From Pyrobaculum oguniense TE7 (GTDB lineage: Archaea; Thermoproteota; Thermoprotei; Thermoproteales; Thermoproteaceae): DNA of 64,000 nt. Positions 38,498 through 63,223 of this stretch are shown here, piece by piece. How positions within the stretch are numbered: position 1 is the first letter of the stretch; the number at the start of each line of letters is the position of its first letter. The notes under the pieces are model-generated. The model was given only the letters and a program-made list of their open reading frames with translations. It made no database searches and had not been told where the DNA came from. Both the position numbers and the translations under genes were made by a program. Where the stretch lies: the NCBI GenBank assembly GCA_000247545.1, contig CP003316.1, positions 777,233-841,232 of the forward strand, in the 5' to 3' direction.

Positions 38498-39040
38498 TAC
38501 ATGATGTTGAGAGACACGTACAAGGAGCTACCACGCTTCGTGGAGCTAATGGCGGAAGTAGGCGTCGACGAGGTAAGACTGTCCAACTTGTCGTATGTGC
38601 CGCATCCCGACTTCTGGAATTACAAGATCTATGCCAAGATGTTCGAGCCCGAGCCCGCCGATGTGTTAAAAGCCGTAGAAGAGGCCAAGGAGGTAGCCAA
38701 GAAGTGGGGCATAAAGCTCACGCAGGGGCGGTTTTCGCCCTGGGAACAACCCGAATGCCCAGAAGTGCCTACAAAAACTCTCTTCATATCGGTAAACGGC
38801 GACGTATATCCCTGTGTGTACTTAAGCCTAGCCGGATTTCCCAGATGTTTTGAGGGGAAGTGCCACAAAATCCCCGCGCTGTTTTTTGGAAACGCCAGAA
38901 GCGAGAAGCTATGCGACATCGTCAAGAAAAGGGCTTACGTAGAGTTTGTGCAGAAGTTTGAAATGAGAAAAAGAGCTGACCTCTTCCTGCCAGATCCGCC
39001 AGAGGTATGTAAAAAATGTTACAGACTTTACTGGATATAG
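38498..39040 (+). pseudogene. radical SAM/SPASM protein, C-terminal half only
   Basis: 180 codons aligning with residues about 154-331 of the intact paralogue at 62228-63223: YMMLRDTYKELPRF, GVDEVRLSNLSYVPHPDFW, KMFEPEP, FSPWEQPECPE, YPCVYLSLAG and the same ending CKKCYRLYWI. The N-terminal part with the CxxxCxxC cluster is missing, so it cannot bind the radical SAM cluster. An internal ATG at 38501 keeps an open frame, but the product would be inactive as an rSAM enzyme. Confidence 0.85.
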
Positions 39041-39685: not shown

Positions 39686-41179
39686 CTACGACGCCAGCGC
39701 TTTTATTAGGTAGTGGTGTACGTCGTGGAAGAACAGCCACGATATCGCAAAGCCTATCCATATAATCACACCGAATAGCAGAATGAGGTATATCGCTATG
39801 ATCTTCCCAAAGCCCTCCCTCTTCAAAGTACCGAAGTCTGTTATGAGGCCTATCGATGTGAAAGTCATCGCGAAGAAGAATTTCCTAAAATCGTCAATGA
39901 GGCTCTGCGCCTCTCTATAAGGCTTTACGGCCTCTCTCTGAGCCGCAACGTCCGCGCCTGCGGCTGCAATCGCCGCGCCTGTCATCGCAGCAAGGATAAT
40001 CATTGTAGCCATGAAGCCGAGGACGAACTTGGGGAACCTAAACCAGATCTCCAGCTTTCTCACCTTCTCGCCGGGTCTTCTCTCAATCCAGTAAACCCAA
40101 ACTACAGCTAGTATAAACGCCCAGACTCCAATAAAGATGTCAATAAACAGCTTTGTCAAGACCGTGGTGTTTAGTATCCAGCCCTTCAGCGGCGCGTATT
40201 CTGGATACCACCCTACCATCAACGCGTCGACTATAGCGCCGCTTGCCGCCGCTGCGCCGTCTGTCTTAATTGCCAGCCCCATCCACGCGCCTGCTACAAG
40301 CGGCTGGTGGGCGAGGAAAATAGCCGCTACGAAGGGCAGTATGACGAGCTCAACCGCGGCGAAGACTACTACCAAAGAGGCGATCACGGCAGGTACATGG
40401 GGTCTTGCTCTTATAACCGCCGCCGTTGCTATGGCTGCGGATACGCCACATATCGAAATACCTGAGGCAAGCGGCGCCGCCCACTCCCGCGTAAGCCCCC
40501 ACTTTCTTGCAATTATATAAGCGAGGCCCCAGTATATCAAATACGCCTCGACTATTGCAGCGACACCTCTGAGGACATAGTTTGCCAACAAGCCGACAGG
40601 CAATCTTACGACGTCTATACCCAGCTTAGCGCCTAGGAGCACTATCGCGATTTTAATATACAGCTCAGGCTTCGCGGCGTCTCTCAGAAAGTTCGCAAAG
40701 CCTCTGAAGAAGTTGCTAATAATAAGGCCAGCAAGTAGAGCAAAGAGGAGGCCAGCCTCTCCCGTCATCCTCAGCGAGAATCCAAGTTGCTCAACTTTTT
40801 TGGGGTCAGTCTCCGCTATATACGCCCAGTGTCCAAACCAGTACGTTATCATCGTAATGATATAGATAAACGTGTAGCCGGCGATGAACCTTTTTAAATT
40901 CCACTTCATAGCAACCACGGCTATCGACAACAGGACTACCGTAACTACATACAGTATCACGTAGGACAGGATTGGATGGAGCCACGCATAGTCTTTTGAT
41001 GCAGGTGTAACGCTTACAGCAGGATCAACCCAAATGCCGATCTTCGGGAACCAGCCAAAGGTGTTTACGCCGGCGATGTACAAAAGCCCAATGAAGAATA
41101 TGAGTAGCCCAAGCCACAGAGCCCACCAATCCTCTTTCTTGTATAGAGAACTCCAGTCTATTCCCTTTCCGCTTGCCAT
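39686..41179 (-). CDS. YeiH-family (UPF0324) putative sulfur-oxyanion transporter, intact copy
   Basis: 497 residues with about ten to twelve membrane helices. Family elements: LYIKIAIVLLGAKLGIDVV, ASGISICGVSAAIATAAVI, MGLAIKTDGAAAASGAIVDAL and FAMTFTSIGLITDFGTL, as in the Cons_hypoth698/YeiH family often annotated as a putative sulfate exporter. An N-terminal DWSSLYKKEDWWALWLGL precedes the core. Followed by a tiny membrane peptide gene. A broken paralogue lies at 60810-62231. Transport of sulfite or sulfate is suggested by family annotation and the surrounding sulfur genes, not proven. Confidence 0.9.
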   Translation of the reverse strand: MASGKGIDWSSLYKKEDWWALWLGLLIFFIGLLYIAGVNTFGWFPKIGIWVDPAVSVTPASKDYAWLHPILSYVILYVVTVVLLSIAVVAMKWNLKRFIAGYTFIYIITMITYWFGHWAYIAETDPKKVEQLGFSLRMTGEAGLLFALLAGLIISNFFRGFANFLRDAAKPELYIKIAIVLLGAKLGIDVVRLPVGLLANYVLRGVAAIVEAYLIYWGLAYIIARKWGLTREWAAPLASGISICGVSAAIATAAVIRARPHVPAVIASLVVVFAAVELVILPFVAAIFLAHQPLVAGAWMGLAIKTDGAAAASGAIVDALMVGWYPEYAPLKGWILNTTVLTKLFIDIFIGVWAFILAVVWVYWIERRPGEKVRKLEIWFRFPKFVLGFMATMIILAAMTGAAIAAAGADVAAQREAVKPYREAQSLIDDFRKFFFAMTFTSIGLITDFGTLKREGFGKIIAIYLILLFGVIIWIGFAISWLFFHDVHHYLIKALAS

Positions 41180-57629: not shown

Positions 57630-58133
57630 GTGGATTTTCCTCTCCTCGTCAAGCCCTGGCGAGACTTGCAGAGGTATAAAGAGGCTAGGTTGAGGGAGGC
57701 TGAAGTAGAGGCTAGGCTTGCGCTGGATTTTTTAGAAGAGGGGCTTGTGAGTAACGCGGCAGGTAAGGCCTTCCAGGCGTGGTAAGCCTACCTGGTAGCC
57801 CTACTGGCGGAGAGGAGAGAAGAGGTGAAAAAACACATACCCGGCGTCAAGAAGATAAGTGTAGGAGGCGAGGAACTAGAGGTAGAGGAAGCAGACATAA
57901 TCTCGATTGTGCCCATCTCTTCAATGATCCGCCTCGCCGCTTTGATAGGAGGAGAGGCCGTGGAAACCACGGCGCTGGCCCTCCAGCTCCACCGCTATCA
58001 GTACAACGGCCCAGACCCAGAGGGCTACTTCTCCGACATACCCGACGACAAGACGGCCACCACGGCCATATGCAGAATAGTATCAAAAATAGTACAAGAC
58101 AACTACTACAAGAAAAACTGCGGAGCGGCGTAG
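57630..58133 (+). pseudogene. PaREP1-family protein with nonsense codon
   Basis: From the GTG at 57630: RLREAEVEARLALDFLEEGL, VSNAAGKAFQAW, then TAA at 57783-57785 in place of the Lys codon of the paralogue (AWKSYL), then in the same frame AYLVALLAERREEVKKHIPG and QLHRYQYNGPDPEGYFSDIP. A single substitution kills an otherwise complete 167-codon gene. Intact relative at 33783-34277. Confidence 0.85.
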
Positions 58134-58362
58134 GTCAAGGCCACAACGACGAGTCTAGCGGCTACTCGAGCGCCTATTCGACACGCACGGCGCAGAAGCT
58201 GTCAAATAGTCTTTATACAAAAATTATGTCAAACTCTTCGTTATATCATTAAAGCGATAGTAGAAAAATAATTTAAATTTACAACTCTGTTATAGGTTAA
58301 TAAAAAAATTCATAGTGTAAGATCTCGAATTATGTCTAGGGGTTGGAATAAAACCTTGCCAG

Positions 58363-58612
58363 CTACTTTTCACTTACTTGTTTCAAGTTTTCTTCCATGC
58401 AACTTCCCATTGCCTTGAGTACGGTTATCATTATGCCCATTGCTTTTTGAACCTCGGGGTCTCTCATGGCGCTTAGGAGGCCGAAGAGGCCGACCTTCGG
58501 CGCGCCGTTTTCAGCTATTTGCCTCAGCGCCTTGCTTGTGCAAGTCACCCCGCCCTGCATCGCCGCGCCCATAGCGTTGAGATCCGCGGCGTCCATAATA
58601 GACAGCATTGAG
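58363..58612 (-). pseudogene. DUF1641 protein, 3' part only
   Basis: 82 codons: DLNSMLSIMDAADLNAMGAA, KVGLFGLLSAMRDPEVQKAM, GIMITVLKAMGSCMEENL. The KVGLFGLLxAMxDPxVQ pattern is the DUF1641 core, a helical family that occurs beside heterodisulfide reductase-like and formate dehydrogenase-like Fe-S enzymes. Its 5' part is missing; the sequence runs directly into a dsrK remnant in another frame at about 58610. Confidence 0.75.
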
Positions 58613-59001
58613 TTGAGATCTTTTCGAGGTGCTTTTCGTCAAAGGTCCTGGCGCCCACCGCCTTGCCGAAAATCCTCCCGCTGAGAGACTCCGCCTTTAA
58701 CACCGCTATTATCAACTCGGCGCGGCCCACTGGCGAGTTGTAGATATCCTTAGTCCTCACATATGTGGGGCAGTTGTCGAGGCTGACGCTACAGTGGACA
58801 CAGACCTCGAACACCATTTTTGACATTTCTCTTAGAAGTCGTTCCCTCCCTCAGCCTCTTCTTTATATGTTCCAGCGGGTTTGGAGGTAGCTCCAGGCCC
58901 ACCTTAGAGTGGAGCGTCTTTATCTGGTCTTCGCGAGCCTTTAAAGACTTAAAATTTGAGGTGTCCCTTATTTTAAACACAGGAGCGTGTTCAGTAGCCA
59001 C
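58610..59001 (-). pseudogene. dsrK: dsrK N-terminal remnant
   Basis: HdrD-like Fe-S subunit of the DsrMK membrane complex. From the GTG at 59001: TEHAPVFKIRDTSNFKSLKA, KVGLELPPNPLEHIKKRLRE, then an extra A shifts the frame, and FEVCVHCSVSLDNCPTYVRT with SPVGRAELIIAVLKAESLSG follow. The cluster motif is C-x2-C-x2-S-x3-CP: the third Cys is Ser. After FDEKHLEKIST the gene stops being DsrK and meets the DUF1641 fragment. Lost: the second cluster motif and the CCG domains. Confidence 0.8.
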
Positions 59002-59107: not shown

Positions 59108-60435
59108 GTGATAGCCCGCGTTGTAATTTCCGCCCCGAGGGGCATGTCAGACAAGACCATAGTCACCCTGGCAATTCTCCGACCTTAGAAAGAGAGGGTA
59201 CAACGTAGCCTACTCAAAGTGGGGCATGATCACATAGACCCCTCTTACCATAAATGGGTCTCTGGGTGGCCTAGCAGAGACCTCGACGTGGTGTTAATGG
59301 GAGAGGACGGAGTGGTTGAGAGATTTCTACGCTACTCCGCGGGGGGCTGATGTGGTGGTGGTAGAGGGCGTCTTAGGCCCCTACGACTCGGTAGATGGCG
59401 TGAGCGAGTTGGGGTCAACTGCGCAAGTGGCAAAGTTGTTAAAGGCGCCTGTGGTGCTTGTTTTAAACGGCGACAGGGTTAATAGAACTCTCAGAGCTGT
59501 GGTAAGGAGGCTAAAGGTCTTTGACCCCAGCGTGGCAACACCTGGAGTAATACTCACTAGAGTGGCGCTTGGGCCGGGCGGAGAGGCTTGCCAAGTCCCT
59601 CCCAGAGGAAGGGGGATATACTTGGCGTAGTCCCAAAGTCCAGAGCCGTGACAGAGGCATTTTCCTACCGCCACCTAGGCCTAGTCCCAGTGGACGAAGG
59701 GGGCGTCCCGATGTTAGAAAAAGTGTTAGACAACTACGTAGAGCCTTATATCGACTTAGACCGCCTAGTAGAAATTGCTAAGTTAAGCGACTAGCTAGAC
59801 GCGCGCGTGGAGGGGGGAGACTTGCTTACGCGGGTGGGGTGGCGTTGCGGTAGACAGCGCCTTCAATTTCCACTACCCCGAGCTTCTAGAAGAGGCTGAG
59901 GCCCTAGGCGAGGTGGTTTACCTAAGCGTTGCGAGAGACGGCGCCTTGCCGCCAGTAGATGTGTTAATAGTGGGGCGAGGCTTTCCAGAAGTCTTGGCGG
60001 AGAAATAGGAGAGAAACAAGTGATTTAGAAAAGCCGTGTTAGAATATGTGGAGAGGGGCGGGAGGGTGTATGCAAAATGCGGAGGCTTTACGTACATGAC
60101 CTCATTCAATTGTAATTGACAGCTCGGAGTATGAAATGGCAGGCGCCATAGACGCAGTTACGTACGTGTTAGAGAGGCCGGTAGGTAAGGGCTATGCGTG
60201 GGGAACTGTAGTCGGCGAGACTCCAGCAGCCCCCACAACGCCTTTCTCAAAGGCTACGAGTTCCACTACTCAAGAATGGCATTTAGAGAGAAGGCCCAGC
60301 CTGTAATTGGGCTTGAGAGAGGCGTGGGGATAGGCGGAGGGTGGGACGGGGTGGTGAAGAAAAATCTACACACCCAGTACATACACATACATCCCCACAC
60401 CTACAGCGTGTTGAGAGGCTATGCCAATCTACGTA
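59108..60435 (+). pseudogene. dsrN/cbiA-type amidase, heavily decayed
   Basis: Fragments in several frames follow the order of CbiA/DsrN (cobyrinate or siroheme a,c-diamide synthase): ARVVISAPRGMSDKTIVTLA (P-loop region), GADVVVVEGVLGPYDSVDGV, RHLGLVPVDEGGVPMLEK, then the glutaminase part AVDSAFNFHYPELLEEAEAL, RVYAKCGGFTYMT (catalytic Cys) and KGYEFHYSRMAF. At least five indels or stops. Next to dsrK and before a SUMT remnant, so siroheme amidation (DsrN) is the likely original role. Confidence 0.8.
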
Positions 60436-60554
60436 GTGGGGGGCCGGCCCGGGGGACCCAAGCCTCTTGACGCTCAAGTCGGTGGAACTACAGTCAAAAG
60501 CCGACGTAGTGGCCTTCGGCGACTTAGTGCCAGAGGAAATCCCGCCGAGAAACC
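60421..60554 (+). pseudogene. SUMT (cobA-like) uroporphyrinogen methyltransferase, 5' fragment
   Basis: Starts ATG inside the dsrN remnant: MPIYVVGGRPGGPK, then in a shifted frame SLLTLKSVELQSKADVVAFG and DLVPEEIPPRN. This is the N terminus of SAM-dependent uroporphyrin-III C-methyltransferases (VGxGPGDPxLLTLKxxxxLxxADVV). The rest is missing; at about 60555 the sequence changes to a fragment of another gene. SUMT is the first step toward siroheme. Confidence 0.75.
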
Positions 60555-60641
60555 ACCAAGAAGATACTGACAGAGTTTCCGTCGGCGCGGGTAGACGCCA
60601 GAGGTTTTTTAGAAGATCTCCCCGTGACGTTTAAGATGTAA
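60555..60641 (+). pseudogene. fragment of paralogue of the 117-residue sulfur-linked protein
   Basis: 28 codons reading KKILTEFPSARVDARGFLED and LPVTFKM before TAA, nearly identical to residues about 49-77 of the protein at 54594-54947 (KKILAAFPSARVDARGFLED). Both ends are truncated. It proves that a second copy of that gene existed in this cluster. Bases 60642-60809 show no gene. Confidence 0.8.
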
Positions 60642-60809: not shown

Positions 60810-62231
60810 ATGGCCCAGCAACAAAAGATTGATTGGAGTTCTTTGTGGAAGAAAGAAGATTGGTGGGCCCTGTGGCTTGGGTTTTTTGTTTTCTTACTGG
60901 CGTGGTTCCTCCTATTGGGCTTACTTCATGAGCGCAACCGCTATGGACAACACCACTAGGGTGAAGAAGTAGAGCAATATGAGGCTCCAGCCGCCGAGGT
61001 ATGCAAATTCCTTGCTCGCTGTTGATATACTTATTGATGGGTCAATCCACACGCGGGTCTTAGGCACCCCGACGTGAAGGCATTTGCAGTGGGCTACACC
61101 GTTATTTTTTGGCTTTCCTACCTCATGTGGTGGTTTGGCCACTATGCCTACATCGCCGTCACTCCTGACGTGTGGCCTAGATATGGAATTAACTGGAGCC
61201 TCAGCCTAACTGGCGAGGCTGGCTACATATTTGCATTAGTTCTCGGCCTTTTAATAGGCAACGCCGTGAGGAAGCTCCCCAAGCCGCTTGAAGTATCAGC
61301 CAGGCCTGAGTGGTATATAAAGACTGCCATAGTCCTACTAGGCGCAGTGGTTGGCGCAAAGGCGCTTCAAAATATGACTGTTGTAGCTGAGGTATTAACA
61401 AGAAGCCTCATAGCAATTATAGCGGCGTATTTAATTTACTGACCAATTTCATACTTAATATCAAGAAAAATTGGCTTAGATAGGCAGTGGGCTGCAACGC
61501 TGGCTTCTGGAGTCAGCATCTGCGGAGTCTCTGCGGCCATAGCCACTGCGGCAGCAATTGGGGCCCCCGCCGTGATTCCAGGCACAATTGCCTCTATCAT
61601 AGTCATATTTGCAGTAATCGAGTTGATAGTTCTCCCCTGGGTGGCGGCTCAGATTTTGACATGGGCCACTTTGGCCGCGGGGGCGTGGATGGGTCTCGCT
61701 GTTAAGACGGACGGAGCCGCGGCAGCCTCAGGCGCTGTTACAGATGCATTAATAAAAGTTAAAGTGCCTGAAGCCGCAGGCTGGGTCACTGCAACGGCGG
61801 TGACTGTTAAAGTATTTATAGACATTTGGATAGGACTATGGGCATTTGTACTAGCCCTGTGGTGGGTTACGAGAGTAGAGAGAAGGCCAGGAGAGAAGGT
61901 TCAAGCCGTAGTCATTTGGTATAGATTTCCAAAAATTGTAATTGGCTATTTCGTTACAAGGTTTGCAATATTAGCCCTGGCCTCTTACATACCTATTAAA
62001 GACGCCATTTCTCTTGCCAGTGCCGTAACGGGACAGTCGGACGTGTTAAGACAGTTCTTCTTCCTCATAACTTTCACCTCCATAGGGCTAACTACTAACT
62101 TTAGAAAGTTTAAAGAAATCGGCGCCGGCAAGGCCGTGGTGGCTTACTTTATATCCTTGCTGGTTATAATATTCATAGCCTTAGGCCTCTCCGTGGCTTT
62201 CTTCGCAGGAGTGCCTCTGCCCAAGTCCTAA
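60810..62231 (+). pseudogene. YeiH-family transporter, second copy: internal inversion plus nonsense codon
   Basis: 474-codon paralogue of the transporter at 39686-41179. It starts QKIDWSSLWKKEDWWALWLG. Codons 39-90 lie in an inverted 156-bp segment (see 60924-61079); flipped back, the frame is continuous and aligns with the intact copy through KTRVWIDPSISISTASKEFA and LVVLSIAVALMK. A TGA at 61440-61442 replaces the conserved Trp of YLIYW. Beyond that the frame is good to TAA 62229-62231 (SGVSICGVSAAIATAAAI; KTDGAAAASGAVTDAL). The last 4 bases overlap the convergent radical SAM gene. Confidence 0.92.
60924..61079. other. 156-bp inverted segment within the YeiH pseudogene
   Basis: The segment begins CTTCA (60924-60928) and ends TGAAG (61075-61079), a perfect 5-bp inverted repeat (7 bp with one mismatch: CTTCATG against CTTCACG). 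Its minus strand encodes exactly the piece missing from the transporter: HVGVPKTRVWIDPSISIS to VALMK. Reversal joins LLLGL to LHVGVP and VALMK to AFAVGYTV with no base gained or lost. No invertase gene is next to it. Confidence 0.93.
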
Positions 62232-63223
62232 ATCCAGTAAAGTCTATAACATTTTTTGCACGGCCCCGGCGGGTCCGTGGGGATAAAATCCGATTTTTTC
62301 CTCGCTTCAAATATACCGACAAATTCTCTACGTCTTTTTAAAATGGCTCTAATTCCCTCCCTAATATTGCCAAAAGAGAGCCGAGGATTTTTCTCGCACT
62401 TTTCTTCAAAACACCTCAGGGCGTAGTCAGGCAGGCTTAGGTAGACACAGGGATACACCTCGCCGTCGGCGTCAATGTATAAAGTTGAAGTTGGTGCCTC
62501 TGGACATTCTAGGTGTTCCCAAGGCGAGAACCGCCTGTGGCTCAGCTTTACGCCGCTCTTCTCAGCCACCTCTTTTGCCTCTCTTATTGTCGCCAATACG
62601 TGGGGAGGCTCTGGTTCGAACATTTTAGAAAAGACTTTCAACCGCCAGAGGCTGGGGTGTGGCAGGTAGGACAAGTTGCTAAGCCTCACTTCGTCTACGC
62701 CGAGCTCGGCTGCCAATTTGACAAAGAAAGGGAGTTCTCTATAGGTATCTCCCAGCATCATATATATCGCCACTATCCTCGTCCCCAAGGCTTTTAACTG
62801 GGGCGACAACCTGCGCAGGTTTTGTAAAATTGTATTAAAGTCATTACCTGGCCTATATCTATTGTGTGTCTCAGCCCTGGCACCTGCAAATGTGACAGCT
62901 AAAATATCAACGCCAGTTTTAACTATCCCATTTGCTAAACTCCCTGCTAATAAAACCCCGTTGGTGGTAAACCCTACAGAAAAGTGGCGACGCGCAAGCA
63001 TTAACATTTCCAAAAACTGGGGATGTAACAAGGGCTCGCCCCAGCCTTGTAGGTGAACATATTTAACCCCCGCACCTACTCCCTCTTCTATCACGCGTTG
63101 AAAAAGAGAGAATTCCATAAACCTCCCCACCCACTTGTCGCGGTAAATAGTAAGCGGACAGTAGACACAACGCCCATTACACGTCGTGGAAACACCCACT
63201 TGGAAGACGTTTATCACAAACAC
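62228..63223 (-). CDS. radical SAM/SPASM-domain protein, intact copy
   Basis: 331 residues. The radical SAM cluster motif STTCNGRCVYCPLTIYR (CxxxCxxC) is at about residues 12-28, followed by VHLQGWGEPLLHP, the GGEP-like SAM element. A C-terminal auxiliary-cluster set is suggested by ECPEAPTSTLYIDADGEVYP, CVYLSLPDYALRCFEEKC and CKKCYRLYWI. SPASM proteins modify peptides or cofactors; the substrate is unknown. Convergent with the YeiH-type pseudogene; the truncated paralogue at 38498 is convergent with the intact YeiH gene, so the pairing is conserved. Confidence 0.88.
   Translation of the reverse strand: MFVINVFQVGVSTTCNGRCVYCPLTIYRDKWVGRFMEFSLFQRVIEEGVGAGVKYVHLQGWGEPLLHPQFLEMLMLARRHFSVGFTTNGVLLAGSLANGIVKTGVDILAVTFAGARAETHNRYRPGNDFNTILQNLRRLSPQLKALGTRIVAIYMMLGDTYRELPFFVKLAAELGVDEVRLSNLSYLPHPSLWRLKVFSKMFEPEPPHVLATIREAKEVAEKSGVKLSHRRFSPWEHLECPEAPTSTLYIDADGEVYPCVYLSLPDYALRCFEEKCEKNPRLSFGNIREGIRAILKRRREFVGIFEARKKSDFIPTDPPGPCKKCYRLYWI

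What the first reader, a model, noticed from the sequence alone, without database searches (positions are those of the whole stretch)
60924..61079. Precise 156-bp inversion inside a transporter gene, bounded by CTTCA/TGAAG
A block of exactly 52 codons inside the second YeiH-family gene lies backwards. Reading its minus strand gives the missing transmembrane segment, and flipping the block back restores the frame at both ends without a single indel and aligns with the intact paralogue at 39686-41179. The ends are 5-bp perfect inverted repeats. Such a clean, frame-preserving inversion is either very recent or an active phase-variation switch, which would be notable in a hyperthermophilic archaeon. 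The downstream TGA at 61440 means that flipping alone would not restore the full protein.
Basis: seen in the sequence. Interest (0 to 1): 0.88.

Follow-up and report, generated by a model that had tools for sequence, protein, structure and literature searches.

The report
Small inversion in a dead transporter gene
In the hot-spring archaeon Pyrobaculum oguniense, about 148 bases inside a spare copy of a sulfite/sulfate-exporter-like gene have been flipped once, killing a gene that also carries a premature stop; the flip is real, but it looks like ordinary gene decay and not a genetic switch.

Summary
The inversion is real; the switch reading is not supported. The gene at 60810-62231 is a YeiH-family (PF03601) transporter. 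An orthologue in another Pyrobaculum genome (G010) has the same block in the coding orientation and intact flanks, so the inversion arose on the P. oguniense side. TGAAG at 61075-61079 is part of a conserved D-V-K motif that never moved. The 5-bp inverted repeat is therefore a by-product: two nearby TGAAG words were direct repeats before the breakpoint fell between them. The inferred ancestral ends have no inverted repeat above chance. "Frame restored without an indel" holds for any balanced inversion. A second lesion (W to TGA, 61440), a decayed third copy, an intact first copy, a broken cbiA-like gene upstream and no nearby invertase all point to a pseudogene with a one-off microinversion. 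Sequencing reads and P. arsenaticum could not be checked.

The parts
60810..62231 (+). YeiH-family (PF03601, putative sulfate/sulfite exporter) transporter pseudogene, second copy in the window
   Evidence: 48% identity over 488 aa to the intact paralogue; PF03601 match to its C-terminal part; 82% aa identity to orthologue G010
60922..61069 (-). inverted block, best-supported boundaries (148 bp; uncertainty of a few bases)
   Evidence: minus-strand BLASTN block to G010; rank 1 of 328 open candidate intervals against family profiles
60924..60928 (+). CTTCA, reverse complement of the native ATGAAG (M-K) end of the block; not a recombination site
61071..61079 (+).
   Evidence: 11 of 11 bases from 61071 identical to G010 in plus orientation; motif present in relatives
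61440..61442 (+). premature TGA where G010 and the paralogue have W: a second inactivating lesion
39686..41179 (-). intact YeiH-family paralogue (497 aa)
   Evidence: PF03601 E 5.5e-24
59108..60640 (+). upstream CobB/CbiA-like pseudogene, split by frameshifts
   Evidence: tblastn of the intact paralogue from G000:C1:862.5-864 kb in two frames; GATase_3 fragment
62228..63223 (-). convergent radical SAM/SPASM gene, also downstream of the G010 orthologue
   Evidence: PF04055, PF13186; the G010 alignment runs on through it

Best explanation
A single, length-conserving microinversion of about 148 bp (60922-61069) disrupted a redundant YeiH-family transporter gene on the lineage to P. oguniense, and the gene is now a pseudogene with at least one further lesion (W to TGA at 61440). 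Shown here: the inversion, its derived polarity, its best boundaries, absence of an inverted repeat above chance at those boundaries, the second lesion, and redundancy. Inferred: it arose by a rare, non-site-specific event (template switching at a fork, or repair of a break with the fragment rejoined backwards), persisted because the gene was dispensable, and does not flip back at a meaningful rate.
For: Orthologue G010, homologues in the same family (G011, G013) and the paralogue all have the uninverted arrangement. No inverted repeat over 4 bp lies within 12 bp of the inferred ancestral ends, and with one mismatch the best within 40 bp is 7 bp against 6-12 for random pairs of sites. A second nonsense lesion is present. 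The third copy at G000:C1:849.9-850.8 kb has several stops and a frameshift, and the cbiA-like gene upstream is broken. No recombinase is nearby. The junction sequence is found only in this genome among 19 of the family.
Against: No reads were available, so a minority of cells with the other orientation cannot be excluded. P. arsenaticum (about 96% identical) was not among the genomes found, so the inversion cannot be dated. The ancestral junction codons are inferred from relatives about 72% identical in DNA or less. The remaining frame is otherwise open, so residual function of the C-terminal part is not excluded.
Confidence: 0.9

Rival explanations
1. Active intragenic phase-variation switch (inverton): a recombinase flips the block between CTTCA/TGAAG repeats to turn the transporter on and off.
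For: Clean inversion inside a membrane-protein gene; 5-bp repeats in the present sequence; other, large inversions do segregate in the TE7 culture (PMC3558965).
Against: The repeats are not at the supported breakpoints; 5 bp is at chance level; no local invertase; the TGA at 61440 leaves the gene off either way; G010 has no CTTCA at the left end; the published population inversions are elsewhere, two of them bounded by duplicated genes.
Confidence: 0.03
2. Assembly or sequencing artefact: the block is not inverted in the organism.
For: Single published assembly; reads not examined.
Against: 59x 454 Titanium coverage with reads long enough, by general knowledge of the platform, to cross 148 bp, and no long repeat to mislead the assembler. 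The independent TGA shows the gene is decaying anyway.
Confidence: 0.05
3. The inversion was guided by short inverted repeats (template switching or microhomology-mediated repair), as described for primate microinversions. This concerns its origin and is compatible with the best explanation.
For: Primate microinversions are flanked by inverted repeats as short as 3 bp (PMC8755829); weak matches such as TGCCT lie near the breakpoints.
Against: Matches of this length are expected by chance here, none over 4 bp lies within 12 bp of the ends, and the primate cases are 17-33 bp long.
Confidence: 0.3

Closest known systems
Microinversions described between close genomes (human-chimpanzee set, PMC8755829)
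   Same: Short, in-place, length-conserving flip with clean copying of the segment
   Different: 148 bp rather than 17-33 bp, in an archaeon, inside a coding gene, and without a significant flanking inverted repeat
Intragenic invertons (Chanin et al. 2024, cited in PMC11868660)
   Same: Flip of a block within a coding sequence
   Different: No repeats above chance at the true ends, no evidence of both orientations, no invertase nearby, and the gene is dead either way
Large population inversions of P. oguniense TE7 (GluDH, RAMP/paREP, C8; PMC3558965)
   Same: Inversions in the same strain
   Different: Those are 22-173 kb and found in 17-35% of cells, two of them reported to be bounded by duplicated genes; this one is 148 bp at another place with no repeats

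Membership tests
Inverton / site-specific invertible phase switch | Inverted repeats at the ends of the invertible block, longer than chance | tested here: not met
   Best boundaries 60922-61069 have no inverted repeat over 4 bp within 12 bp; a 5-bp repeat is expected in 29% of random pairs
Inverton / site-specific invertible phase switch | Both orientations present in a population or among strains | not testable with these tools
   No reads held and no second strain of the species found; only this genome of 19 in the family has the junction
Inverton / site-specific invertible phase switch | A cognate recombinase, often nearby | tested here: not met
   Only a resolvase at C1:137.7 kb and a sub-threshold integrase match on the extrachromosomal element; other recombinase families were not searched
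Inverton / site-specific invertible phase switch | One orientation gives a functional product | tested here: not met
   TGA at 61440 interrupts the frame in both orientations
Pseudogene by microinversion | Derived inversion relative to orthologues, with loss of the frame | tested here: met
Pseudogene by microinversion | Further inactivating lesions or relaxed constraint | tested here: met
   W to TGA at 61440; redundant intact paralogue. Past purifying selection is visible in codon positions (17%, 8.5% and 58% differences)
YeiH / PF03601 transporter family | PF03601 match over the curated cut-off | tested here: met
   81.9 bits for the C-terminal open part, 85.1 for the intact paralogue (cut-off 24.5)

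The most novel reading that the evidence does not exclude
The block still flips at low frequency without long repeats, giving a rare intragenic switch in a hyperthermophilic archaeon whose present sequence also carries a culture-acquired stop.
Probability: 0.03. Interest if true: 0.75.

Novelty: new member of a known kind. Interest (0 to 1): 0.2.

Why it matters
As a switch it would be notable in a hyperthermophilic archaeon, but the evidence points to ordinary decay of a spare gene. Its modest value is as a clean, well-delimited intragenic microinversion in an archaeon, with breakpoints inferable to a few bases and no repeat above chance, and as a caution: short inverted repeats at an inversion's apparent ends can be made by the inversion itself.

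Tried and rejected
Repeat-mediated site-specific inversion (rejected). Identity with one of the published TE7 population inversions (rejected by coordinates; the locus is at C1:838.15 kb). Looking for the same junction in other genomes of the family (none) and for the gene on plasmids (no match). P. arsenaticum did not appear among the genomes held. The literature searches found no study of microinversions in archaea.

Full report
Identity of the window. The window lies at 777233-841232 of contig 1 of a genome of 2,452,920 bases in two contigs. That equals the sum of the chromosome (2,436,033) and extrachromosomal element (16,887) of Pyrobaculum oguniense TE7 (PMC3558965), and contig 1 has the chromosome's length exactly. 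The naming is an inference from these sizes.

The inversion is real. The gene at 60810-62231, when the block is flipped, aligns to the intact paralogue at 39686-41179 with 48% identity over 488 residues. Its closest relative among the genomes searched, in G010 of the same genus, aligns in three pieces: plus, minus (window 60925-61069 to G010 813556-813700), plus. G010 reads as one open frame there. Homologues in other genomes and the paralogue also read straight through, so the inverted state is derived in the P. oguniense lineage.

Where the ends are. The right-hand piece begins at 61071 with GACGTGAAGGC, identical to G010 in the plus direction over 11 bases. This encodes D-V-K, which precedes A-F-A-V-G-Y-T in the unflipped frame as in relatives (K-F-D-V-K-A-Y, K-Y-N-V-K-K-F and the like). 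I flipped every interval with its left end in 60902-60944 and right end in 61050-61094, kept the 328 that leave an open frame, and scored each against family profiles built without this gene. The interval 60922-61069 came first in both profiles (262.8 and 297.1 bits). This interval restores L-G-W-V-P-K and M-K-Y-D-V-K-A-F, as in relatives, with no indel and no substitution needed.

The repeat is a by-product. In the inferred ancestor the right end reads ATGAAGTA|CGACGTGAAGG, with TGAAG twice in the same direction, 12 bases apart, because M-K and V-K are encoded by ATG-AAG and GTG-AAG. The breakpoint fell between them, so after the flip they face each other. A repeat of 5 or more bases occurs within 12 bp of random pairs of points at this spacing in 29% of trials. 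The inferred ancestral ends have none over 4, and with one mismatch the best within 40 bp is 7, at the low end of random values. Any balanced inversion restores length and frame when reversed, so the clean frame is not evidence for a switch; 148 is not a multiple of three.

A pseudogene among pseudogenes. TGG in G010 is TGA at 61440 in the window, so the protein is truncated in either orientation. A third copy at C1:849.9-850.8 kb has several stops and a frameshift. The gene upstream is a broken copy of a CobB/CbiA-like gene whose intact paralogue lies at C1:862.5-864 kb. The first YeiH-family copy is intact. Differences from G010 are 17%, 8.5% and 58% at the three codon positions, the mark of long past selection for function, so the loss is comparatively late. 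In Salmonella YeiH acts in sulfite resistance (PMC12880088, title and abstract); that function for the archaeal copies is an inference from the family.

No switch machinery seen. Of the two recombinase families searched, the genome has one resolvase, at C1:137.7 kb, and one sub-threshold integrase match on the extrachromosomal element. The three inversions known to segregate in TE7 are 22-173 kb long and elsewhere. The junction is in no other genome of the family held.

How unusual. A scan of 1.2 Mb of this genome against 1.2 Mb of G010, about 364 kb alignable, found seven distinct local inversions under about 1.1 kb including this one. The other six coincide with whole small genes or gene pairs; this is the only one inside a gene. 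At this divergence flips well under 100 bp would be missed.

Mechanism. The likeliest origin is a one-off replication or repair error. Primate microinversions are explained by template switching or microhomology-mediated repair at short inverted repeats (PMC8755829); such short matches exist here but at chance level, so the route is not determined. Not shown: the absence of the other orientation in living cells, and the date of the event.

Noticed in passing
window 38501-39040: SPASM protein beside the intact YeiH copy matches only residues 151-331 of the radical SAM/SPASM gene at 62228-63223; its N-terminal half is not found in the adjacent kilobase.
   Followed up: partly
window 59108-60640: Frameshifted CobB/CbiA-like pseudogene with an intact paralogue at G000:C1:862.5-864 kb.
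   Followed up: partly
G000:C1:849883-850793 (outside the window): Third YeiH-family copy, decayed with several stops and a frameshift.
   Followed up: partly
G000:C1:59667-60613, 116617-117667, 290220-290551, 294441-294581, 608103-608967, 1149533-1149847: Local inversions relative to G010 that coincide with whole small genes or gene pairs.
   Followed up: partly
window 57630-58080 and 58360-58620: Stretches with many diverged copies across this and other Pyrobaculum genomes, perhaps the repeat families (paREP) named in PMC3558965.
   Followed up: no
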